Source: an uncultured Elusimicrobiales bacterium (GTDB taxonomy: Bacteria; Elusimicrobiota; Elusimicrobia; Elusimicrobiales; Elusimicrobiaceae). Taken from it: a stretch of 45,468 bases of DNA. The stretch lies in assembly GCA_944325055.1 (NCBI GenBank), contig CALUYP010000029.1, forward strand, positions 1 to 45,468. Direction: 5' to 3'. The translations under genes and the position numbers were made by a program. The notes below the pieces were generated by a model, which saw nothing but the letters and a program-made list of their open reading frames with translations, was not told the origin of the DNA and ran no database searches. Below, in pieces: positions 21,254 to 41,546 of this stretch; position 1 is the first letter of the stretch; each line of letters starts with the position of its first letter.

Positions 21254-21628
21254 ATGGATACAAAACTGATTACGGAAGTAACCGATTGGCTTAAAACCAC
21301 CGATTTGGCTGAGTTCTGCTACGAAAAAGACGGCGATTGCATTGAAGTCAAAACCAGTGAAGCGCTGCCTGAGCCGGCGCATTTTTCCTGCTCGCTTACG
21401 GCGGTTACGGCCCCTGCTGTGGGTATTTACCGGGCGGCGGATAAAGGTAAGAATCTGGTGCTTAAAGAAGGCCAAACGATCAAAGAAAATGATCCTTTGG
21501 GATGGGTGGAAACGGTCTCTAAAAAACATAAAATTACCGCACCTGTATCTGGGAAACTTCGTGTTGTAACGGCGCAGGAAGGTGCGCCGGTAGAGTTTGG
21601 TCTGCCGCTGTTTTTTATTGAGAGATAG
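21254..21628 (+). CDS. accB: Biotin carboxyl carrier-like protein with degenerate biotinylation site
   Basis: A 124-residue protein with an N-terminal helical part and a C-terminal barrel-type carrier domain (about residues 50-123): VTAPAVGIYRAADKG, VLKEGQTIKENDPLGWVE and ITAPVSGKL are the flanking strands of a BCCP. At the tip of the hairpin, where EAMKM is normal, the sequence is E86-T87-V88-S89-K90. The biotinyl-lysine position is Ser89, with Lys90 and Lys91 just after it. It lies eight bases before accC, so by context it belongs to acetyl-CoA carboxylase, making malonyl-CoA for fatty acids. Either the ligase accepts a shifted lysine or this copy is not biotinylated. Confidence 0.75.
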   Translation: MDTKLITEVTDWLKTTDLAEFCYEKDGDCIEVKTSEALPEPAHFSCSLTAVTAPAVGIYRAADKGKNLVLKEGQTIKENDPLGWVETVSKKHKITAPVSGKLRVVTAQEGAPVEFGLPLFFIER

Positions 21629-21636
21629 GAGTGTTC

Positions 21637-23028
21637 ATGCCTGCCAAAGTTACTATTACCCCCTTTAAAAAAGTTTTGATTGCCAACCGCGGAGAAATCG
21701 CGTTGCGTGTCATCCGGACCCTCAAAGAAATGGGAATTCAATCGGTAGCCGTCTATTCCGAGGCGGACCGGAACAGCCTGCATGTTCGCATGGCCGATGA
21801 AGCCGTGTGCATTGGAGCGGCGCCTTCTCCGGTAAGTTATCTAAACATTGACGCCATTGTAACTGCCGGCAAGATTACCGGTGCGGATGCGGTACACCCC
21901 GGATACGGATTTTTATCCGAGAACGCGGATTTTGCTTCTGCGGTAACGAAAGCCGGCATGACTTTTATCGGCCCGACCGCTGAAGCGATTGAAATGTTGG
22001 GCGTCAAATCGACTGCCCGCGAAATTGCGGTAAGAGCCGGTGTTCCGATTACACCCGGTTCGGATGGGGTCGTGGGTAAAAATTTTCGCGAAGTGGCCCG
22101 TAAAATTGGGTTTCCCATCATGATTAAAGCTTCTTTGGGCGGCGGCGGGAAAGGCATGCGCGCGTGCTTAAAAGAAGAAGATTTAGAACGAATGATGAAA
22201 ACGGCGCAGGGCGAGGCCAAAGCTAATTTTGGCGACGACCGCGTGTATTTTGAAAAACTGGTTTTGAACCCGCGTCATATTGAAGTGCAGGTGGCTGGGG
22301 ATAACTATGGGAATGTGGTTGCGTTTGCCGAGCGCGACTGCAGCATGCAGCGCCGCCATCAGAAACTGGTGGAAGAATCGCCTTCTCCGTTTGTGGATCC
22401 GGTTACGCGTCAGAAACTGCAGGAAGCGGCATGCAAGTTGGTCAAAGCCGCCAAATACCGCGGAGTGGGAACGGTGGAATTTTTAATGGCGCAGAACAAG
22501 GAATTTTATTTTATGGAAGTGAATACCCGTTTGCAGGTGGAACATCCGGTAACAGAGTCTGTATGCGGGCAGGACTTGGTCAAAATGCAAATTCAAATTG
22601 CGCAAGGAGAACCGTTGCATATTACCCAAGAAGAAGCTTCTGTGATTAATTGCCGCGCTATTGAGCACCGTATTAATGCGGAAGACAGTGAAATGAATTT
22701 TACGCCTTGCCCCGGTACAATTGAAGAATGGATTCCCGCCGGCGGATTAGGCGTGCGGGTGGACAGCCATATGTATCCAGGTTATACGATTCCCAGCTAC
22801 TATGACAGTCTAATCGCGAAGCTGATTGTGACCGCCCCCGACCGGGAACGTTTATTGGCGCGCAGCCGCCGCTGTTTAGGAGAATTTGTCGTAGGCGGAA
22901 TCAAAACGACTATTCCGTTTCATCAAAAGATTGTCAACAATGATGATTTCATCCGGGGCAATATGGATACGGGCCTGATTGAACGGATGATGGCTAAAGA
23001 GCAGGAAAGCAGTGAAAGCAAAAAATAA
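21637..23028 (+). CDS. accC: Biotin carboxylase subunit of acetyl-CoA carboxylase
   Basis: A 463-residue ATP-grasp protein starting at [19 protein letters not shown]. Visible motifs are [22 protein letters not shown] (glycine-rich ATP loop), [41 protein letters not shown] and RINAED. All the expected catalytic elements are present. It carboxylates biotin on BCCP with bicarbonate and ATP. The ATG at 21637 follows AGGAG by six bases. It overlaps the next gene by 17 bases. No carboxyltransferase genes (accA, accD) are in the window. Confidence 0.95.
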
Positions 23029-23476
23029 GATTTTAGGTCCGCGCGCGCTGAAAAGATTTGTGGAATCGGCGCGACGTGAAGGCCGAAAAATTGTTTTTAC
23101 GAATGGATGTTTTGATATTTTACACGCCGGGCATGTAAGCGTGCTGGAGTTTTCGCGCGCCAAAGGGGATGTGCTGGTGGTGGGTTTAAACAGCGATGCT
23201 TCCGTACGCCGCTTAAAAGGGCCGAGCCGCCCTGTTAACGCCCAAGCGGACCGGGCTTTGGTGTTGGCGGGGTTGGAAAGCGTGTCGGCCGTATGTATTT
23301 TTGAGCAGGATACGCCGTATGAACTGATAAAAATCGTTCGGCCGGACGTATTGGTAAAGGGCGGCGATTATAAAACCGATGAAATTGTCGGTCGTGAATT
23401 TGCAAAGAAAGTGGTTCGGTTTCCTTTATTAAAGGGGCGTTCCACCACAAATATAATTAAAAAGGTAAGTAAATAG
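23012..23476 (+). CDS. rfaE2: D-glycero-beta-D-manno-heptose 1-phosphate adenylyltransferase
   Basis: A 154-residue nucleotidyltransferase, equal to the C-terminal half of Hld[23 protein letters not shown] has the HxGH signature, [20 protein letters not shown] is the family-specific stretch, and [11 protein letters not shown] replaces the ISSTxI motif. It activates heptose phosphate with ATP to ADP-heptose for the LPS inner core, implying an outer membrane with heptose-containing LPS. The start is GTG at 23012, overlapping accC, with AGGA upstream. The kinase half is not in the window. Confidence 0.92.
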
Positions 23477-23539: not shown

Positions 23540-24730
23540 ATGTCTGATATTTTTGAGAAATGCAGAAATTATAAAGACGCCAAGTTGGCTATGCGTATGG
23601 GTATTTATGGCTATTTTCAGCCGATAGAATCTGCGCAGGGGCCGGAGGTAATTTTGGAAGGCAAGAAATTTATCATGGCCGGATCCAACAATTATTTAGG
23701 GTTGGCGAATGATCCCGAAATGAAGAAGGCTGCCAGTGAAGCTGCACTCCAATATGGTACCGGCTGCGCCGGGTCACGCTTCTTAAATGGAAATACCAAA
23801 GCTGCTGAAGAATTGGAAGCGCGGCTGGCACGATTCAAACGCAAGGAAGCGGGATTAATTTTCTCTACTGGATATCAGATGAATTTGGGCGTGGTGTCTT
23901 GTTTGGTAAAAAAAGGCGATTATGCTATTGTAGACAAACTGGACCATGCCAGCATTTTAGACGGAGTCAAACTTTCTGAAGGAGAAATGGTTCGTTTTAA
24001 ACATAACGATCCGGCGGATTTGGACCGCGTATTATCTAAATTGCCCGAAGAAGCGGGGAAGTTGATTATCGTGGACGGTGTGTTTAGCATGGAAGGAGAT
24101 ATCTGCCCGTTGCCGGAAATCGTGAAGATTGCCAAGAAATATGGTGCCCGGATTATAGTGGATGATGCGCATGCTACCGGAATTATCGGCAAGACCGGAC
24201 GCGGCACCTGTGAATATTTTGGCTTGGAAAACGGCGAAGTGGACTTAGTGGTAGGCACCTGTTCTAAAACGTTTGCCACCGTGGGCGGTTTTGTAGTTGG
24301 TGCGGCGGATGTGATTCATTATATTCGCCATAATGCCCGCAGTCAAATTTTTTCCGCTGCGCTGCCGCCGGCTTCCGTGGCCTCCATTACCAAAGCGCTG
24401 GAGCTGATTGAAAACGACACCTCCCGGCGTGATAATTTGTTCCGTTTAACCGCCAAGCTCAAAAAGGGATTAGAAGACTTGGGATACGATTTGGGTACCA
24501 GTACTACGCCGGTATTGCCGGTGCATGTGGGCAGCAATGAAAATTGTTTTAAAATGTGGCGGGCTTTGCATGAGTTGGGCATTTTCTCCAACCCGGTGGT
24601 CAGCCCCGCCGTGCCGCCCGGACGGGCCTTAATGCGTTTGACGTTAATGGCAACGCATACCGATGAGCATGTGGCAAAAATCATTGACGCATTCGCCCAA
24701 GCAGGCCGTTCCATTGGCATCATAAAATAG
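23540..24730 (+). CDS. Alpha-oxoamine synthase (serine palmitoyltransferase / KBL / BioF-like)
   Basis: A 396-residue PLP enzyme. Key elements are NNYLGLANDPEMKKAA, YGTGCAGSRFLNGN, FSTGYQMNLG, VDKLDHASILDG (His stacking on PLP), IIVDDAHATGIIGKTGRG, and GTCSKTFATVGGFVVG with the PLP lysine. It joins an amino acid and an acyl-CoA with loss of CO2. The choice among serine palmitoyltransferase, glycine C-acetyltransferase and 8-amino-7-oxononanoate synthase cannot be made with certainty; no biotin genes or threonine dehydrogenase are near, and the neighbouring GNAT-like gene favours a lipid (sphingoid) role. ATG at 23540 with a GAGGA-type site. Confidence 0.85.
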   Translation: MSDIFEKCRNYKDAKLAMRMGIYGYFQPIESAQGPEVILEGKKFIMAGSNNYLGLANDPEMKKAASEAALQYGTGCAGSRFLNGNTKAAEELEARLARFKRKEAGLIFSTGYQMNLGVVSCLVKKGDYAIVDKLDHASILDGVKLSEGEMVRFKHNDPADLDRVLSKLPEEAGKLIIVDGVFSMEGDICPLPEIVKIAKKYGARIIVDDAHATGIIGKTGRGTCEYFGLENGEVDLVVGTCSKTFATVGGFVVGAADVIHYIRHNARSQIFSAALPPASVASITKALELIENDTSRRDNLFRLTAKLKKGLEDLGYDLGTSTTPVLPVHVGSNENCFKMWRALHELGIFSNPVVSPAVPPGRALMRLTLMATHTDEHVAKIIDAFAQAGRSIGIIK

Positions 24731-24743
24731 TTCTTGTTTGAAG

Positions 24744-24780
24744 CCCCGTTCTGAGAGTTGTTAAAAAGAGCGGGGTTTTT
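24744..24780 (+). terminator. Terminator after the alpha-oxoamine synthase gene
   Basis: CCCCGTTCT (24744-24752) pairs with AGAGCGGGG (24767-24775) with one mismatch and is followed by TTTTTCTTT. Confidence 0.8.
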
Positions 24781-24798
24781 CTTTGGGGAGGGCAATAT

Positions 24799-25914
24799 AT
24801 GGCTGTTACAGTTACAGTACGGCAATTAACCGAACAAGAGTTAGACCTTTTTGTGGATTTTCCGTTTCAACTTTATAAGAACGATCCGTATTGGGTGGGG
24901 GACTTGAAAGCAGATACCCAACATTTGATTGGAAAAGAGAATATCTTCTGGACGCATGGAGAGCGTGCGTTGTTTATGGCGTACCAAGAAGGCAAACCGG
25001 TCGGACGGATTATGGCGCTTGTCAACTGGGCGCACAATGAATACCAAAAGGAAAATATCGGTTTCTTCGGTTTTTTTGACTGTATAGACAGCCAAGAAGC
25101 CGCCAACGCCCTTTTTGAGGCGGCTGAAAATTGGCTGCGTGCAAAAGGCGTAAACGCCGTGCGCGGGCCGGCCAATCCCTCCAGCAACCACGTATATGGC
25201 TTGCTGGTAGATGGGTTTGACAGTATGCCTTCCATTATGATGCCGTACAATTATCCGTATTACGCCGAACTGATTGAAGGAGCCGGGTTTGGAAAAATAA
25301 AAGATTTGTTGGCTTTTCACCGCACCAAAGACGATCAGTTTTCCGAACGATTTACCAAAGTCTGTGCGCGATGCGCGCGCGGAAAAGGAATTACGCTAAG
25401 AAGACTCAACCTGAAAAAAATCGATGAAGAAGCTGAAATTATTCGCAAAATCTATAACGAAGCCTGGGCGGAAAACTGGGGATTTGTGCCGATGTCCGAA
25501 CGGGAAATGGCCGATGTGGTCAAAGAATTAAAGCTGGTGGTGCGCAAGGAAGGTACTTGCGTGCTGGAAGTGGACGGCGTACCGGCGGGATTCTATATTT
25601 TAATTCCCAATATGAATCACGTGTTAAAAGAACTGAAAGGGTCGCTCGTCAATCCTTGGCGCGTTATAAAGGCGTTATGGGCGTGGCGGAAAATCAAAGA
25701 TGCGCGGATGATTATGTTAGGCGTGTCGCCCCAATTCCGTCAGCGTGGAATTGATTTGGTTTTAATTAAACATATTATTGACTATGGCGTAGCCGTATGG
25801 AACGAGGCGGAATTGTCGTGGGTGTTGGAAGATAACGAAGGTATTATCCGCGGTATTACGGAATGCGGCTGCCATTTAAGTAAACGTTACCGTTTGTATC
25901 AAAAAAGCTTATAA
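24799..25914 (+). CDS. GNAT-fold acyltransferase-like protein (YghO/bCerS-like)
   Basis: A 371-residue protein with two GNAT-like lobes. The first lobe has FPFQLYKNDPYWV, RIMALVNWAHN and a VNAVRGPANPSSNHVYGLLVDGF stretch, and the second has a VLEVDGVPAGFYILIPNMN strand and the acyl-CoA-binding type MIMLGVSPQFRQRGIDLVLIKHII. It resembles the group including E. coli YghO and, from memory, the bacterial ceramide synthases described in Caulobacter. The distinct RGPANPSSNHVYGLLVDGF segment is typical of that group. Immediately downstream of an SPT-like gene, it could N-acylate the product. The assignment to a lipid pathway is inference. Confidence 0.7.
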   Translation: MAVTVTVRQLTEQELDLFVDFPFQLYKNDPYWVGDLKADTQHLIGKENIFWTHGERALFMAYQEGKPVGRIMALVNWAHNEYQKENIGFFGFFDCIDSQEAANALFEAAENWLRAKGVNAVRGPANPSSNHVYGLLVDGFDSMPSIMMPYNYPYYAELIEGAGFGKIKDLLAFHRTKDDQFSERFTKVCARCARGKGITLRRLNLKKIDEEAEIIRKIYNEAWAENWGFVPMSEREMADVVKELKLVVRKEGTCVLEVDGVPAGFYILIPNMNHVLKELKGSLVNPWRVIKALWAWRKIKDARMIMLGVSPQFRQRGIDLVLIKHIIDYGVAVWNEAELSWVLEDNEGIIRGITECGCHLSKRYRLYQKSL

Positions 25915-26263
25915 GAAATTCGCAAAAATTTCCGCCAAGCTTGTGTTATTGCTATATTGTTGTAAATAAAGGCCCTGTTCTTCCCACGGAAACAGGGCCT
26001 TTGTATCAATTGCCCGGAGTGGAGTCCCCTCTCTCGTCCGGACGGATAAAAACCGATAGAAATTTTAGCGGAGAAACAAGAAGCAAAACCGAAAAGAATC
26101 TGGATACACAGGATGTTTCTTTTATAACATACTGGATTTGATATAAAAAAGGAAGTGGAAAAATTAATTAGTTCATCCTAAAGAACTGTTTTTTATGGAG
26201 CAGAACGAAGTATACATTCCAAACCGCATAACAACCGCGCCGGGTATGATTGGGAGCGAAGAG
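25915..26263. other. 349-bp intergenic region, mostly unexplained
   Basis: Only the hairpin at 25968-26002 is recognisable. The remaining ~260 bases contain a GTCCGGAC palindrome near 26037 and no convincing coding or RNA structure. Confidence 0.5.
25968..26002. terminator. Bidirectional hairpin after the GNAT-like gene
   Basis: AAAGGCCCTGTT (25968-25979) pairs with AACAGGGCCTTT (25991-26002), a perfect 12-bp stem with A/T ends in both directions. Confidence 0.75.
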
Positions 26264-27178
26264 TTAATCCGCCGGTTGGGTGGTTACGCGTTCCCAGGCC
26301 GCTTTAAAATCTAGTGGGACGGGTGCTTCAAACATCAGTTTTTTGCCTGTCAGCGGATGTTTAAATTCAATCCGTCTGGCGTGGAGCATTAACCGGTCTG
26401 CCGTCGCGCCGCGGTAGAGCCAGTCTCCTAGTACGGGATATCCCAGCCAGTTTAAATGCACCCGCAGCTGGTTGGTGCGCCCGGTGCGGGGGTAGAGTTC
26501 AATATAGGTAAAACCGTTTTTGCGTTTCAGTACTCGATAATCGGTTACGGCTTCGCGTCCGACGTCTGAGGCTTTGATCTTTCCGCCGGCAATGCGCCCA
26601 ATGGGTACGTCGATGGTCCCTTTGTCGTCAGGTACCTCTCCGCAGGCAATGGCGTGGTAGGTCTTATGCACTTCTCGATTGGCAAACAAAGCAATCATTT
26701 CCGCTTGAAATTCCGGCGTTTTCGCTACCAACATTATGCCGCTGGTTTCCCGGTCCAGACGGTGTACCAGCCCTGCCCGCGGCATAGAAACGTCAAATCC
26801 TTTAGGGGGGTTAGCCAAAATAACGGAAACCAACGTTTCTTCCGACGAGAAAACTGCTTCGGGGTGTTCCTCCCATACAGGGCTTTGCGGGTGCACGAGC
26901 ATGCCGGCTGGTTTGATGAGGACAAAAAAATCTTTTGCGTCGTGAATAATTAAATCTTTCAATTGGGTATTGGCTTGCGCTTGTGGCATTTCTATTTCCA
27001 CTACTTCGCCCGATGTTAGAGGCCAGGAGGGTTTTACTTTTTTGCCGTTTACGGTAATTTTGCCGTCTTTAATCATTTTCTGGACAAGAGCGCGCGAAAA
27101 ATCAGCCAGCTCGTCGGCTGCGAATACGTCTAGACGGCGGGAGTATCCTTCAAAAATAATTTTTTTGTTTTCAGCCAT
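26264..27178 (-). CDS. RluA/RluD-family rRNA pseudouridine synthase
   Basis: A 304-residue protein with an N-terminal S4 domain (LDVFAADELADFSRALVQKMIKDGKI..NGKKV) and a catalytic domain containing GLVHRLDRETSGIMLVAKT, where the Asp is catalytic, plus RTGRTNQLRVHL and HPLTGKKLMFEAP. It converts uridine to pseudouridine in 23S rRNA; RluD-type specificity is likely because of the S4 domain but not proven. It is the last gene of a run from eno through ftsB, an MBL hydrolase and lgt, with gaps of zero to about ten bases, so it is probably one operon. Confidence 0.92.
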   Translation of the reverse strand: MAENKKIIFEGYSRRLDVFAADELADFSRALVQKMIKDGKITVNGKKVKPSWPLTSGEVVEIEMPQAQANTQLKDLIIHDAKDFFVLIKPAGMLVHPQSPVWEEHPEAVFSSEETLVSVILANPPKGFDVSMPRAGLVHRLDRETSGIMLVAKTPEFQAEMIALFANREVHKTYHAIACGEVPDDKGTIDVPIGRIAGGKIKASDVGREAVTDYRVLKRKNGFTYIELYPRTGRTNQLRVHLNWLGYPVLGDWLYRGATADRLMLHARRIEFKHPLTGKKLMFEAPVPLDFKAAWERVTTQPAD

Positions 27179-32828: not shown

Positions 32829-33266
32829 ATGAGAAAATTAAAAATTTTAAGTGCGGTTATACTGCTTTTAGCCGGTTGCGCTACATTGGAACAGAGTAAT
32901 TTGGATTGGATTCCAATCGGGCCGGATTTTCCTCCTACTAAAGCCAAAAAAGTGGAAATTTTGGGAAGCAAAGCGGAAATAACCCGTCCTTACGGAAACT
33001 TGGGGCTGTTGCGTATTAAAAATTTAAAACCAGACCGCGATGTGCTGAAAATGGGCGTTGAGAAAGGACGCCGCTTTGTAGCCTCTAAAGGAGCTGACGC
33101 AATGTTAATTGGACAATATAACAGCGCGGAGGATGGAGCCTCCGAACCACGCGTGACGTTGATTATTTATGCCATTAAATACGTCGATCAGCTGACGGAA
33201 GAAGACCAAAAAGCGATTGAAGATTTTAAGGTATTGGGGATTTTAAATGAACGTTCTGATAGCTAA
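32829..33266 (+). CDS. Small lipoprotein of unknown function
   Basis: A 145-residue protein with the lipoprotein signal MRKLKILSAVILLLAGC. The ATG at 32829 is preferred over the upstream GTG because AGAGGAG lies six bases before it. The mature part has two mixed alpha/beta stretches (KAKKVEILGSKAEITRPY and GVEKGRRFVASKGADAMLIG), reminiscent of small DUF4156/RcsF-like lipoproteins, but I cannot assign a family. It overlaps the ComB-QueC gene by 20 bases, so it is translated in the same transcript. Confidence 0.8.
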   Translation: MRKLKILSAVILLLAGCATLEQSNLDWIPIGPDFPPTKAKKVEILGSKAEITRPYGNLGLLRIKNLKPDRDVLKMGVEKGRRFVASKGADAMLIGQYNSAEDGASEPRVTLIIYAIKYVDQLTEEDQKAIEDFKVLGILNERSDS

Positions 33267-35190
33267 AACCATCGAAGAATGTAAACAATGGACCGAAGTG
33301 GCTGTAATAATAGATGTATTACGGGATGCTACCACGGTTTGTGCGCTGTTGGAAAAAGGGAAAAAAGAACTCTTGGTTTTTGGAAATGTCCAACAGGCGG
33401 CTGTTTTTGCCAAAGAGCATGGAGAATTCGAAATTTACTGCGAAGGCGATTTTCAAGCTGCGCACGAGGACAATTCTCCTTTTTTGGCTTCTAAATCCAA
33501 CGCCCGGAAACCTGCACTTTTGGTGGCTTCTTCTTCTACAGGACATTTTATCTTTTCCAGCCAAGCTTCACTCCTTTTTTTGGGAGGATTTTGTAACTTT
33601 CATGCATTGGCAGAAAAGCTGGAAGAACAAAATAAAAGTATATTGCTGATTCCCAGCTCCCTCTACACGGGAAAGGATGACGTGGAAGATAATTTCTGCG
33701 CCGCAGCGTTAAAAGATTGTATTCAAGGGATTGGCAATCCGCAGGAAGCGATTATTGAGTTTAATAATACAATGCGCTATGAAGAGTTTGTAGCACAAGG
33801 CACTAAAACCGCCCAAAAAGATCTGAAAATCGCTTTTAATTTGGATGCTTTGCCGGTGGTGCCGCAAATCAGCCGTTCAAATGAAGAATACGGGGTATGT
33901 CATCCGTATGGACAGGTGCCTTCTGAAAAATGGTTTATTCAGAAACCGGAATCTTCCCAACCCGTTACGGCTCCGTTGCCGGCTGAACCGCCAGATGACA
34001 TTCCGCTGCAACCATTGACACAAGAGGTAAAAGCACCCAACCCGGAAACAAAGGGCTCTGAAACAAAAATACCAAAAGAACAAACGAATCTTCAGAAAGA
34101 GAAGCCTTCGGCGTCCCAACAGGCGGACCGGACGGAAGAGTCTTCGCTAAAGAAGGAATCGCCCGCTGTAAAAGAAAATCTAGCCGCCGCTAAAAAGACT
34201 GCCACGACGCGTTTGAAAGGATTTTTTAGCGGTATTTTACAAGCGGTAAAAGAAGAAAAAGCGGAATTTGAAAGGGAAATCGCTCCTAAAAAAGCGCAGC
34301 CCCGTAAGGCGGTTACTCACCAGTCAGAAGATCTGCTTGACCAGGTTTTGAAAAGAGCAGAAAAAACATCTAGACCTAAGGAGCCTGTTTCACAAGAAGT
34401 GACTTCGTCCGCTTCTTCTCCCCAACAAGAGAAGCAGGAAGAAAAATCGGATCTAAAGCCAAGAGATTCTTCTTCAGAAGTTACTTTTTCCGGTCAAAAA
34501 TCCGGTTTTGAAGACAAGAACCCCAAAAAGGCGATTGTGCTTTTTTCGGGAGGATTAGATTCCACTACCTGTCTGTATTGGGCCTTGTCACAAGGATATG
34601 AATGTGAAGCGCTGACGGTTTCATACGGACAGCGTCATGAAAGAGAAGTATTGGCGGCGCAAGAGATTGCACGCCGTTTAGGAATTAAACATCATTTAAT
34701 TACGCTTGATTTGCCATGGCTTTCTTGTTGTTCGTTGGTGGATAAAAAGCAAAAACTTCCGGATGTGGCGGTAGAAGACATTCCCAAAGAAGGAATTCCT
34801 TCTACCTATGTGCCGGGACGGAATCTTATGTTCCTGGCTATAGCAGGTTCTTTGCTGGATGCGGTGGGAGCGGAGGCTGTCATTGCGGGGCCTAACGCAA
34901 TTGATTTCTCCGGCTATCCGGATTGTACGCCTGCATTTTTTAAAGCTGCCGCCGAAGCGCTTAACCGCGGTACTAAGACGGGAGTTAGTGAAGGAATAGA
35001 AGTATTGGCGCCGCTGATGCGTTATTCCAAGGCACAAATAGTAAAATTAGCCGCCAGTTTAAAGGTTCCCTTTGAATTGACGTGGAGTTGTTATGCCGGC
35101 GGCAAGAAGCCATGCGGACACTGCGATTCATGCAAATTGCGTGCGAAAGGGTTTGCGGAAGCCGGCGTACACGATACCGCTTTAGACTGA
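33247..35190 (+). CDS. queC: ComB-like domain fused to 7-cyano-7-deazaguanine synthase (QueC)
   Basis: A 647-residue single chain. Residues 1-235 match the 2-phosphosulfolactate phosphatase (ComB) fold: VAVIIDVLRDATTVCALLEKG, CEGDFQAAHEDNSPF, and DDVEDNFCAAAL. Its TTNGT loop is changed to SSSTG (96-99). Residues ~240-425 are a Pro/Lys/Glu-rich, low-complexity linker. Residues 427-647 are a complete QueC: PP-loop FSGGLDSTT (434-439), YVPGRNLMF, GPNAIDFSGYPDC, and zinc cysteines C615, C623, C626, C629. QueC makes preQ0, the precursor of queuosine, from carboxy-deazaguanine and ammonia. No Met start lies at the QueC border, so the fusion is real within this reading. The ComB partner's role is unknown. 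Confidence 0.92.
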   Translation: MNVLIAKTIEECKQWTEVAVIIDVLRDATTVCALLEKGKKELLVFGNVQQAAVFAKEHGEFEIYCEGDFQAAHEDNSPFLASKSNARKPALLVASSSTGHFIFSSQASLLFLGGFCNFHALAEKLEEQNKSILLIPSSLYTGKDDVEDNFCAAALKDCIQGIGNPQEAIIEFNNTMRYEEFVAQGTKTAQKDLKIAFNLDALPVVPQISRSNEEYGVCHPYGQVPSEKWFIQKPESSQPVTAPLPAEPPDDIPLQPLTQEVKAPNPETKGSETKIPKEQTNLQKEKPSASQQADRTEESSLKKESPAVKENLAAAKKTATTRLKGFFSGILQAVKEEKAEFEREIAPKKAQPRKAVTHQSEDLLDQVLKRAEKTSRPKEPVSQEVTSSASSPQQEKQEEKSDLKPRDSSSEVTFSGQKSGFEDKNPKKAIVLFSGGLDSTTCLYWALSQGYECEALTVSYGQRHEREVLAAQEIARRLGIKHHLITLDLPWLSCCSLVDKKQKLPDVAVEDIPKEGIPSTYVPGRNLMFLAIAGSLLDAVGAEAVIAGPNAIDFSGYPDCTPAFFKAAAEALNRGTKTGVSEGIEVLAPLMRYSKAQIVKLAASLKVPFELTWSCYAGGKKPCGHCDSCKLRAKGFAEAGVHDTALD

Positions 35191-39035: not shown

Positions 39036-39509
39036 ATGCCACTAAGTGAACAAAGTAAAATATGCTTGGGGAGTTTGGTGGGTGCGTCCCGGGTGTTGGT
39101 AGCGGATGCTTATCCGAGCAAAGAAGAATTGATAACGGCGTTGGTAGAGAGGGTCTGCCGGGATTTTCCTCAGTTGGATCCGGCGGATGTCGCCGCGCAG
39201 GTTTTAAAACGCGAAGAAGGTATTAGCACCACCCTTGATACCGGTCTTTCTATTCCACATGCCCGTTTAGAAGAATTAACGGATTTTGTGGCCGCGGTCG
39301 CGGTGTTACGCAAACCGTTGTCTGCGACGGCGCAGGGCGAGTTGCCTATTCAGGTCATGTTTTTATTTTTATCTCCCGCAAAACCCGCTTTTTTCCAGAA
39401 ACACTTACAAATTCTTTCCGCATTGGCTGAAAAGTTTAAGCCGGAATTTATTGAAGAATTGGTTTCGCTTAAAAACGCGGAGGAAATTGTTGCGCGCTTG
39501 GCGCAATAG
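39036..39509 (+). CDS. PTS EIIA-type domain protein (PtsN/fructose type)
   Basis: A 157-residue protein with the EIIA signature around the active His: TTLDTGLSIPHARLEELTDFV (H75). The rest (MFLFLSPAKPAFFQKHLQILSALA) fits the PTS_EIIA_2 family. There is no EIIB, EIIC or HPr nearby. It is ten bases before the APC transporter gene and probably translated with it. A regulatory role on that transporter, or on nitrogen metabolism, is likely rather than sugar uptake. H75 is intact, so phosphorylation is possible. Confidence 0.88.
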   Translation: MPLSEQSKICLGSLVGASRVLVADAYPSKEELITALVERVCRDFPQLDPADVAAQVLKREEGISTTLDTGLSIPHARLEELTDFVAAVAVLRKPLSATAQGELPIQVMFLFLSPAKPAFFQKHLQILSALAEKFKPEFIEELVSLKNAEEIVARLAQ

Positions 39510-39518
39510 TGGGTTGTC

Positions 39519-41546
39519 ATGAATAATTCTGCCGATACTTCTGCTGGTTCTTCCCGTGTAAAAAAAGTAGTCGTACTAACCACTGCTATGTTGACGTTTA
39601 TTCCTTTTTGGAAAGCGGCGGCTGTTGTGCTGTGCGATTTTGGTTCCAGCGCTTTTTATGCCGGCGGCATTGCCATGCGGGCGTTTGGGCCGGCTTTCCC
39701 GTGGTATATTTTGGCGGTGATGCTTTTTTCCGGCTTGCTTTTGATGTTGGAGTTGGAAGCTTGCTCGCTGTTTGTGCGCGGCGGCGCTTACAAGATTGTG
39801 CGGGAAGGATTAGGCGATACGGCTGCCAAGCTGGCGGCTTCCGCCTTGATCTTTGACTTTATTCTGACAGGGCCTATCAGCGCCGTTACCGCCGGGCATT
39901 ATTTATGCGGGCTGCTCAACTCTTTTTTGGAATGGGTCGGCGCAGGATTCGCCTTGCCGGAGGGGGGCGTTTCCGTTTTGTTTGGGCTTATGGTAACGGC
40001 TTATTTCTGGCGTCAAAACGTAAAGGGAATAGAAGAATCCAGTTCCAAAAGCGCTAAAATTATTGCTTTCTCGTTAGCCGTCTGTTTTCTATTAGCTATA
40101 TGGTCGTTTATCACGATTGCCCTTCACGGCGCGCATTTGCCGCCGACGGATTTGTCTTTCTCGGAAGAATCCTTGGGCTGGGCGGGCGGTATAGATTGGA
40201 TGCAGACCATTGGCCTAGTGGGGATGATTATGGCGTTTGGCCACAGCGTATTGGCGCTTTCCGGCATTGAAACGCTGTCCCAGGTATACCGCGAGATTGA
40301 ATATCCCAAAGCCCAAAACTTAAAAAAAGCCGCGTGGCTGATTTTCGGCTTTGCGTTCTTGTTTACCGGGGGGCTGACGTTTTTGTCGGCGGTAATTATT
40401 CCGCCGGAGCTCATCGCGACGAAATACAATGATAATTTGCTCGCCGGATTGGCAATGAGTATGGCCGGGCCTAATTTTTTGAAACTTTTGATGCAGGCGA
40501 TGATTGTGGTTTGCGGCGTGGCAATGCTTTCCGGCGCGGTCAATACTTCGCTTATCGGCTCTAACGCGCTGATGAACCGCATTGCCGAAGACGGCATTTT
40601 AACCGATTGGTTTCGCAAAATTCACCGCCGTTTTGGTACGTCTTATCATATTATTCACTTGATTGCTGCCGTGCAATTGGCGGTGATTATTCTGTCGCGC
40701 GGGAATGTGTATCTGCTGGGGGAAGCGTATGCGTTTGGGGTGATGTGGTGTTTTGTGTTTGAAGTTTCCGCCATTATACGGTTGAGATGGAAGAAAGCCG
40801 CCCAAAAACGCGATTTTATGTTCCCGCTGAATATCAAATACGAAAATTACTATATTCCCATTGGGCTTATCCTGCTGTGCGGCATTTTGGTAACGGTGGC
40901 GTGCGTGAACTTGTTTACCAAGCAGATTGCCACAATTGCCGGGTTGGGATTTACGGCGTTTTTGTTTGCGGTGTTTTCTTTGTCGGAACGGTTGAACGCC
41001 AAGCGGGCCAATACGATGTTTGAAGAAGGTTACCGCGAACGCATCAACGCCGAAACGGTGGATGATTTGAAAGAAGCTTTTGCCGATTTAGACCGCCCGC
41101 ACCGAATTTTGGTGGCGGTAAAAGATCCGGAAAATTTGTATCACTTGGAAGAAGTACTGAGCCAAGCCAACGCTGATGAAACGGACGTAATCGTACTTTA
41201 CTGTAAACCAGTGGAAAATGTACTGTACCGCAAAGATATGCGTTCGGCGGCGGTGGACGAACAGGAAGTGTTTACCGCGGTCATTTTGCTGGCGGAAAAA
41301 TACGGACTTCCCGTTACGCCGGTGCTGGTCCATTCTAATGACGCTTATTATGCCATGGCGCAAGCTGCGGCCGTAGCGGATGCCGAGGAGATTGTGATGG
41401 GCGTTTCCGGCCGCCACGGCGCCAACCCGCAAATTGAACGCGCCGTAATGACGTGGGGCGCCGTTAAAGACCGCGAGTTAAAACATCCCGTTACCTTACG
41501 GATTTTATGGGAAGGGCGGGAAGTTTCTTATCGTTTTACCCGTTAG
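39519..41546 (+). CDS. APC-type amino acid permease with C-terminal Usp-like domain
   Basis: A 675-residue protein. Residues ~20-490 have 12 membrane helices of the APC fold, including GHSVLALSGIETLSQVYREIEYPK and a SLIGSNALMNRIAEDGILTDWF end of the transport core. Residues ~515-675 are soluble with an HRILVAVKDPENLYHLEEVL start and ADAEEIVMGVSGRHG near the end, the universal-stress-protein-type ATP-binding fold. It would import amino acids or amines, with the C-terminal domain as regulator. It is paired with an EIIA protein; the two together suggest phosphorylation- or ATP-dependent control. Confidence 0.87.
   Translation: MNNSADTSAGSSRVKKVVVLTTAMLTFIPFWKAAAVVLCDFGSSAFYAGGIAMRAFGPAFPWYILAVMLFSGLLLMLELEACSLFVRGGAYKIVREGLGDTAAKLAASALIFDFILTGPISAVTAGHYLCGLLNSFLEWVGAGFALPEGGVSVLFGLMVTAYFWRQNVKGIEESSSKSAKIIAFSLAVCFLLAIWSFITIALHGAHLPPTDLSFSEESLGWAGGIDWMQTIGLVGMIMAFGHSVLALSGIETLSQVYREIEYPKAQNLKKAAWLIFGFAFLFTGGLTFLSAVIIPPELIATKYNDNLLAGLAMSMAGPNFLKLLMQAMIVVCGVAMLSGAVNTSLIGSNALMNRIAEDGILTDWFRKIHRRFGTSYHIIHLIAAVQLAVIILSRGNVYLLGEAYAFGVMWCFVFEVSAIIRLRWKKAAQKRDFMFPLNIKYENYYIPIGLILLCGILVTVACVNLFTKQIATIAGLGFTAFLFAVFSLSERLNAKRANTMFEEGYRERINAETVDDLKEAFADLDRPHRILVAVKDPENLYHLEEVLSQANADETDVIVLYCKPVENVLYRKDMRSAAVDEQEVFTAVILLAEKYGLPVTPVLVHSNDAYYAMAQAAAVADAEEIVMGVSGRHGANPQIERAVMTWGAVKDRELKHPVTLRILWEGREVSYRFTR

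What the first reader, a model, noticed from the sequence alone, without database searches (positions are those of the whole stretch)
23540..25914. SPT-like alpha-oxoamine synthase beside a GNAT-like YghO/bCerS-type protein
The pair resembles the first and acylation steps of bacterial ceramide synthesis in Caulobacter and others. If correct, this gut bacterium may make sphingolipids or related N-acyl lipids, relevant to host interaction. A terminator between the two genes argues that they are separately controlled. Glycine C-acetyltransferase remains possible.
Basis: inference. Interest (0 to 1): 0.5.

Follow-up and report, generated by a model that had tools for sequence, protein, structure and literature searches.

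The report
Ceramide-making gene pair in Elusimicrobiota
Two neighbouring genes of a gut-type bacterium look like the first two enzymes of bacterial ceramide (sphingolipid) synthesis, and most sampled genomes of its phylum carry the same pair, so these poorly known bacteria probably put sphingolipid-like lipids in their envelope.

Summary
ATG 23540-24730 encodes an alpha-oxoamine synthase; 24799-25914 encodes a tandem-GNAT protein homologous to E. coli YghO, listed in print as ortholog of Caulobacter CC_1154 (ceramide synthase). The synthase falls in the serine palmitoyltransferase (SPT) clade with two crystallised SPTs; grouping with KBL is rejected (AU p 0.0004), and a relative's separate paralog, not this enzyme, passes NCBI's glycine C-acetyltransferase cut-off. 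The pair is no local oddity: of 149 phylum genomes (Elusimicrobiota) 130 have the GNAT protein, 128 an SPT-grade synthase, and in 122 of the 127 with both they are adjacent on one strand. In 53 genomes a CerR-type reductase lies directly upstream (49 full trios), including five assemblies of 0.5-0.8 Mb. In the window's genome CerR is unlinked; the candidate on contig 78 is inconclusive. The terminator-like hairpin between the genes is real and conserved in the genus, but ends about 18 nt before the CerS start, so attenuation inside an operon fits better than separate control. Most likely: serine (or a related amino acid) plus acyl thioester to a 3-keto base, then N-acylation to a ceramide-type lipid. 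Lipids are untested. A new member of a known kind, notable for its breadth in one phylum.

The parts
21254..21628 (+). accB-like biotin carboxyl carrier gene (named by sequence reading), start of the run accB-accC-rfaE2-spt-cerS
   Evidence: sequence; homologs upstream of spt in the same order in 7 of 7 fetched Elusimicrobiales loci (L042-L047, L051), with 1.2-1.8 kb between accB and accC in 5 of them
21631..23028 (+). accC-like biotin carboxylase gene (named by sequence reading)
   Evidence: sequence; synteny
23012..23476 (+). rfaE2/hldE C-type heptose-1-phosphate adenylyltransferase gene, directly upstream of spt
   Evidence: TIGR02199, 188 bits, over its cut-off of 181.5; synteny
23540..24730 (+). 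SPT-clade PLP-dependent alpha-oxoamine synthase (N50, H136, PLP-lysine K243, R366, SPT-type A273)
24740..24780 (+). terminator-like hairpin with T-run between spt and cerS
   Evidence: strict hairpin in 25 of 30 genus loci, 14 of 1500 shuffles
24799..25914 (+). YghO/bCerS-type tandem-GNAT N-acyltransferase (putative bacterial ceramide synthase)
25970..26002 (+). inverted repeat followed by a short T-run after cerS, possible end of the transcript
   Evidence: read by eye; not listed by the scan

Best explanation
The pair encodes the first two enzymes of a bacterial ceramide-type lipid pathway. The PLP enzyme condenses an amino acid, most likely serine, with a fatty acyl thioester to a 3-keto long-chain base; the tandem-GNAT protein adds the second acyl chain to the amine; a CerR-type SDR reduces the ketone. 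Shown here: gene identity by phylogeny and motifs, predicted fold, conserved linkage, and distribution through the phylum. Inferred: substrates, product, order of steps, the reductase of this genome, and that spt and cerS share a transcript in which the hairpin lowers read-through into cerS.
For: AOS tree of 73 rows: window inside a 50-row clade (SH-aLRT 99) with the Sphingobacterium and S. wittichii SPTs; KBL, BioF and ALAS outside. Window+KBL rejected, p-AU 0.0004; elusimicrobial pair AOS + KBL + second paralogs rejected, p 3e-8. Catalytic N, H, K, R present; A273 in 49 of 49 rows of the pair and reference-SPT groups, N/T in the 6 KBL/BioF/ALAS rows, S/T in 14 of 15 second paralogs. YghO is listed as aca ortholog of CC_1154 (passages of PMC9386255). 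Same gene company elsewhere: E. coli plasmid, Sphingomonas, Roseomonas, Streptomyces AOS-GNAT-epimerase, Aureispira; 64 of 80 named CerS loci carry an SPT in the stretch held, 63 of those 64 adjacent. Adjacent in 122 of 127 phylum genomes with both; CerR directly upstream of spt in 53. CerS model pLDDT 94.5, tandem GNAT, Z 24.0 to 7q3a.
Against: NCBIfam's SPT cut-offs are not reached (502 against 640; 0 of 149 phylum genomes). A Priestia plasmid AOS without an annotated CerS neighbour also falls in the SPT clade, so the clade is wider than proven SPTs. Ala at position 273 is not exclusive: the Priestia row, a Bacteroides plasmid AOS outside the 50-row clade and one second paralog have it too. 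The window genome's CerR candidate is unlinked, 255 bits against 325-371 for 12 linked elusimicrobial CerRs and up to 206 for other SDRs; its place in the tree is weak. G061, which has no CerS match, has a 327-bit CerR-type protein. No constant head-group gene was seen in the flanks scanned. An E. coli-type acpR or aasR was not found in the 40 fetched phylum loci except one ACP-like ORF in L102. No lipid data.
Confidence: 0.82

Rival explanations
1. Same two-step chemistry with another amino acid: alanine or glycine (1-deoxy-type bases) or cysteate (sulfonolipids), so the product is a ceramide-like N-acyl lipid but not a true sphingolipid.
For: Sequence alone does not fix the amino acid; PMC11334938 speaks of a '(1-deoxy)Cer' backbone pathway (passages). 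A ComB-type (phosphosulfolactate phosphatase) domain is encoded in this window at 33247-35190.
Against: Cysteate enzymes (SulA) carry Lys281 where SPTs have alanine (PMC9304779 passages); the window has Ala273. The GTGCAGSRFLNG motif is identical to Sphingobacterium SPT. Alanine or glycine use is not excluded by any test here.
Confidence: 0.12
2. Glycine C-acetyltransferase (KBL) of threonine breakdown beside an unrelated acetyltransferase.
For: Same superfamily; the glycine C-acetyltransferase models score 360 and 293 bits. An SDR-type threonine dehydrogenase (known from recall) was not searched for, so the lack of ADH_N is not a full test for tdh.
Against: Tree and AU test; no ADH_N in the window's genome while 13 of 14 control genomes have it; a relative's KBL-side paralog passes the glycine C-acetyltransferase cut-off (L215) and this enzyme does not; near-constant pairing with a CerS homolog.
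Confidence: 0.03
3. The two genes are separately transcribed and regulated, with the hairpin as a full terminator for spt and a promoter for cerS inside spt.
For: Conserved hairpin; some promoter-like hits inside spt (over the 8 kb scanned 17 found, 11.2 with sd 3.4 expected). In Rhodobacteria cerS is reported to belong always to a different operon than the other genes (PMC11324152 passages).
Against: About 18 nt from the T-run to the start codon, largely taken by the ribosome site; same strand and adjacency in 122 of 127 genomes; outside the genus the two ORFs are 6 nt or less apart or overlap in 11 of 19 fetched loci with a pair (L042-L060; longest-ORF starts, so overlaps may be overstated).
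Confidence: 0.2
4. Non-sphingolipid use: the SPT-clade enzyme makes an alpha-amino ketone intermediate of some other N-acyl compound (signal or pigment).
For: The SPT clade includes a Priestia enzyme without an annotated CerS beside it.
Against: Full CerR-SPT-CerS trios in 49 phylum genomes and linkage in many phyla.
Confidence: 0.05

Closest known systems
Caulobacter crescentus ceramide genes spt (CC_1162), cerS/bcerS (CC_1154), cerR (CC_1164)
   Same: SPT-clade AOS plus YghO-type N-acyltransferase, with a CerR-type SDR candidate in the genome (PMC9386255, PMC11324152 passages)
   Different: Here spt and cerS are adjacent with a hairpin between them, the run starts with accB-accC-rfaE2, and no acpR, aasR or second LptFG pair was seen beside the pair; CerR is unlinked in the window's genome. 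The Caulobacter proteins themselves were not compared.
E. coli yghO cluster (aasR-cerR-acpR-spt with yghO)
   Same: YghO 35% identical over 98% of length; AOS and CerR-type epimerase present
   Different: E. coli SPT passes the NF047599 (beta type) cut-off; the window enzyme scores best on the Bacteroidota type and passes none
Sphingobacterium SPT (3A2B, 8GUH)
   Same: Best PDB match, E 5e-121; same catalytic residues and GTGCAGSRFLNG motif
   Different: The window enzyme does not reach the curated cut-off of the Bacteroidota SPT model
Spt-bCerS-CerR sets of many phyla (Black Sea study, PMC11334938)
   Same: Same three-gene logic; that study raises potential producers to 40 phyla (passages)
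   Different: Elusimicrobiota is not named in its main text (0 occurrences of 'elusimicrobi'); its supplements could not be opened

Membership tests
Serine palmitoyltransferase (alpha-oxoamine synthase family) | PLP-lysine and conserved Asn, His, Arg of the active site | tested here: met
   N50, H136, K243, R366; roles from PMC9304779 passages; shared by nearly all AOS rows, so not discriminating
Serine palmitoyltransferase (alpha-oxoamine synthase family) | Phylogenetic grouping with characterised SPTs, apart from KBL/BioF/ALAS | tested here: met
   (quick tree, SH-aLRT 99; AU test)
Serine palmitoyltransferase (alpha-oxoamine synthase family) | Alanine at the SulA Lys281 position | tested here: met
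   A273
NCBIfam NF047600 SPT, Bacteroidota equivalog | Score over the curated cut-off of 640 bits | tested here: not met
   502 bits; so filed as SPT clade, not as a member of this equivalog
Serine palmitoyltransferase (alpha-oxoamine synthase family) | Serine plus palmitoyl thioester to 3-ketosphinganine | not testable with these tools
   needs an assay
Bacterial ceramide synthase (bCerS/YghO) | Full-length homology to YghO and to orthologs of CC_1154 | tested here: met
   34-38% identity over 98-99% to YghO-type proteins and a Sphingomonas homolog; YghO = aca = CC_1154 ortholog; the Caulobacter sequence itself was not in hand
Bacterial ceramide synthase (bCerS/YghO) | Tandem GNAT fold | tested here: met
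   predicted model
Bacterial ceramide synthase (bCerS/YghO) | Linkage to spt | tested here: met
   122 of 127 phylum genomes; 63 of the 64 named loci that have an SPT in the stretch held
Bacterial ceramide synthase (bCerS/YghO) | Long-chain N-acyltransferase activity | not testable with these tools
   needs an assay
Complete Spt-bCerS-CerR pathway in this genome | A CerR ortholog | tested here: inconclusive
   G000:C78:5589-6545, 255 bits on a CerR model against 124 for the window's galE-like protein, but below all 12 linked elusimicrobial CerRs; weak tree; no NCBIfam cut-off reached
Glycine C-acetyltransferase (KBL) | Groups with KBL | tested here: not met
Glycine C-acetyltransferase (KBL) | Score over the curated cut-off (NF005394 460, TIGR01822 493) | tested here: not met
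   360 and 293 bits
Glycine C-acetyltransferase (KBL) | A threonine dehydrogenase in the genome | tested here: inconclusive
   no ADH_N match, but SDR-type enzymes were not sought and the assembly is 90% complete
Cysteate acyltransferase (SulA) | Lys281 | tested here: not met
   Ala273

The most novel reading that the evidence does not exclude
Ceramide-type lipids are an old core envelope component of Elusimicrobiota, kept beside LPS and retained in strongly reduced lineages (assemblies of 0.5-0.8 Mb), made by a cerR-spt-cerS operon in one part of the phylum and by an accB-accC-rfaE2-spt-cerS run in the window's order, where a conserved hairpin sets the ratio of the two enzymes.
Probability: 0.4. 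Interest if true: 0.6.

Novelty: new member of a known kind. Interest (0 to 1): 0.45.

Why it matters
Gut sphingolipids are known mainly from Bacteroidota, where they modulate host immune responses (introduction text shown). If Elusimicrobiota make ceramide-type lipids, a further gut, rumen and environmental phylum joins the possible sources, and reduced genomes that keep the trio would suggest that the lipid matters for the envelope. A cultured member exists (E. minutum; recalled), so the claim can be tested directly. A cerS next to spt also contrasts with the 'always a different operon' statement made for Rhodobacteria.

Tried and rejected
KBL, BioF, ALAS: outside the window's clade; the window held together with KBL is rejected (BioF and ALAS were not tested that way). 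SulA: wrong residue. LPS replacement (told of sphingomonads in the text): LpxC is in 145 of 149 genomes, so no sign of it. A head-group gene: 10 ORFs near cerS or cerR from 7 phylum loci gave GDP-mannose dehydratase-like, Band_7, lipid A acyltransferase-like, Zip, pilin-like and isocitrate dehydrogenase-like hits or none; nothing constant. Specialised acyl-ACP synthetase: two AMP-binding matches in the window's genome (G000:C57, 312 bits; G000:C55, 43 bits), not assigned. CerR orthology: a 3-row profile, a tree, a 31-row model and NCBIfam leave it open. Literature: no paper on sphingolipid synthesis in Elusimicrobiota or Endomicrobia turned up (0, 38, 20 and 6 papers hold the words; 25, 15 and 6 seen as listings; of these only PMC7203096 was opened, one passage, which does not concern them); the supplements of PMC11334938 were not available.

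Rows dropped or chosen: one search used 22 of the 64 named SPTs, 19 phylum pair loci plus the window, 15 second paralogs and one AOS from a CerS-less genome; one search used 49 of 65 CerS proteins of suitable length (80 loci), plus the window; one search dropped 6 of 25 other-SDR loci without a clear ORF; one search counts an SPT only if it had 428 bits or more, uses for G070 the second-ranked CerS copy, and holds only those CerR hits that I saw on the contig of spt or cerS in the list, which was cut short. The trees are quick ones (no bootstrap); long branches were flagged.
Full report
What is there. The window carries, on the + strand, accB (21254-21628), accC (21631-23028), rfaE2 (23012-23476), an alpha-oxoamine synthase (AOS, 23540-24730) and a 371-aa GNAT-like protein (24799-25914) (accB and accC named by reading the sequence). 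The next large ORF downstream (26264-27178) is on the other strand.

The AOS. NCBIfam ranks it SPT (Bacteroidota type) 502 bits, BioF 396, gly_Cac_T_rel 395, SPT (beta type) 393, glycine C-acetyltransferase 360 and 293; none of these cut-offs is reached. The best solved relatives are Sphingobacterium SPT (407 bits) and the Sphingomonas SPTs. In a 73-row maximum-likelihood tree (quick search, SH-aLRT) it lies in a 50-row clade (99) with both PDB SPTs used, the AOS that accompany yghO-type genes in E. coli, Sphingomonas, Roseomonas, Streptomyces and Aureispira, and 22 AOS from named CerS loci; KBL, ALAS and BioF lie outside. Forcing the window together with KBL costs 83 log units (p-AU 0.0004); forcing the elusimicrobial pair enzymes with KBL and the second paralogs costs 92 (p 3e-8). 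A Priestia enzyme with no annotated CerS beside it also falls in the clade, so the clade is wider than proven SPTs. Active-site N50, H136, K243 and R366 are present. The residue that separates SPT (Ala) from the cysteate enzyme SulA (Lys281; PMC9304779, passages) is Ala273; it is Ala in 49 of 49 rows of the pair and reference-SPT groups, Asn or Thr in the six KBL, BioF and ALAS rows, and Ser or Thr in 14 of 15 second paralogs; it is also Ala in one second paralog, the Priestia row and a Bacteroides plasmid row, so it is not exclusive. The window's genome shows only this one AOS even at E up to 10 and no ADH_N domain, where 13 of 14 control genomes have one; that speaks against a Zn-type tdh, not against an SDR-type one, and the assembly is about 90% complete. 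In a congener the second AOS (L215) passes the gly_Cac_T_rel (557 against 535) and glycine C-acetyltransferase (496 against 460) cut-offs: the KBL-like role, where present, belongs to another gene.

The GNAT protein. It matches YghO-type proteins of E. coli, Klebsiella, Rahnella and Pseudomonas plasmids and a Sphingomonas homolog at 34-38% identity over 98-99% of its length. PMC9386255 (passages) lists yghO ECD_02850 with CC_1154 as the N-acyltransferase gene required for dihydroceramide. I had no Caulobacter sequence to compare directly. The AlphaFold model (50-row alignment, pLDDT 94.5, pTM 0.91) is a tandem GNAT: Z 24.0 to 7q3a (rmsd 3.6, 303 aligned), 15.5-15.7 to N-myristoyltransferases. 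Fold does not prove the acyl donor.

Company. E. coli plasmid: AOS, ACP, epimerase, fatty acyl-AMP ligase and yghO side by side. Streptomyces: AOS-GNAT-epimerase. Sphingomonas and Roseomonas: AOS, ACP, LptF/G-type genes and the GNAT gene, with a CerR-type gene annotated in Sphingomonas. Aureispira: oxidoreductase, AOS, GNAT. Flanks are short in many, so these are lower bounds.

Distribution in the phylum. The GNAT protein is in 130 of 149 genomes; an SPT-grade AOS (428 bits or more) in 128. Of 127 with both, 122 have them adjacent, same strand, spt first. The 5 exceptions: G091 and G125 (spt ends about 200 nt from a contig end), G008 (different contigs), G029 and G045 (only a distant GNAT, 27-29%). 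All 13 genomes of other orders of the same class lack the GNAT protein; 11 of them have an AOS, none over 399 bits. A CerR-type gene lies directly upstream of spt in 53 genomes, with the full trio in 49, among them five assemblies of 0.5-0.8 Mb, 80-85% complete (G131, G097, G105, G113, G109). LpxC is in 145 of 149, so the lipid does not replace LPS. Two 99%-complete genomes (G001, G017) keep CerR and CerS but show no SPT-clade AOS, so the pathway can decay.

CerR in the window's own order. Here the run is accB-accC-rfaE2-spt-cerS (7 of 7 fetched loci; in 5 of them other sequence lies between accB and accC) and CerR is not beside it. The best candidate is G000:C78:5589-6545, 167 bits on a three-row CerR profile with the next SDR at 61. 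On a 31-row CerR model it has 255 bits; its Elusimicrobiales relatives 223-265, 12 linked elusimicrobial CerRs 325-371, other SDRs up to 206. In the tree it joins the CerR side, but with weak support and two other SDRs intruding. NCBIfam names neither it nor a linked CerR over any cut-off. Against specificity: G061, which lacks CerS, has a 327-bit CerR-type protein. I call this step inconclusive.

The hairpin. A GC-rich hairpin with a T-run stands between spt and cerS at 24740-24780. Strict counting finds one in 25 of 30 genus loci against 14 of 1500 shuffles; nearly all of these stems keep a CCCCG core while loops differ. L016 and L020 have none by eye. But about 18 nt separate it from the cerS start, and those hold the ribosome site; a cerS promoter would have to lie in or before the hairpin. 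With near-constant adjacency, and ORFs 6 nt or less apart or overlapping in 11 of 19 fetched pair loci outside the genus, partial termination inside one operon, giving more spt than cerS message, is the simpler reading. This is inference.

Mechanism proposed. Serine + acyl-CoA or acyl-ACP -> 3-keto base (AOS); N-acylation (GNAT); ketone reduction (CerR-type). Whether acylation precedes reduction is open even in Caulobacter (PMC11087976, abstract and start of introduction). Substrates and product are untested.

Known and new. The kind is known: bacterial Spt-bCerS-CerR, with 40 phyla of potential producers by PMC11334938 (passages), whose main text does not name Elusimicrobiota and whose supplements I could not open. 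Searches found no paper in the held library on sphingolipid synthesis in Elusimicrobiota or Endomicrobia (listings, and one passage of one paper). The breadth of the pair in the phylum, its retention in small genomes and the conserved hairpin are the points of interest. 'Gut-type' rests on the rumen and gut origin of named relatives as I read their titles; G034's length (1,643,562) is, from recall, that of E. minutum.

Noticed in passing
window 33247-35190 (+): One 647-aa gene fuses a 2-phosphosulfolactate phosphatase (ComB-type) domain to QueC of queuosine synthesis through a long linker. Of 31 genomes searched (own included) three show a full-length match and seven more both halves within one open frame; in the 12 genomes of the neighbouring family f2 the two halves match as separate neighbouring frames.
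   Followed up: partly
G001:C11:104903-107694 and G017:C1:857802-860108: Two 99%-complete genomes of one genus keep the CerR- and CerS-type genes about 810 and 325 bp apart, with no SPT-clade AOS found in the genome: apparent loss of spt alone.
   Followed up: partly
G061:C16:85470-86402 (L069, L098): A strong CerR-type SDR in a genome without a CerS match or an SPT-grade AOS; its role is unclear.
   Followed up: no
L215-L229, L061: Relatives carry a second AOS, mostly grouping beside KBL with Ser at position 273; L215 passes the glycine C-acetyltransferase cut-off. None was found in the window's own assembly.
   Followed up: partly
window 39519-41546 (+): Amino acid permease with a universal-stress-protein-like C-terminal domain, next to a small ORF at 39036-39509 that reads like a PTS IIA protein (by eye, not tested).
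   Followed up: no
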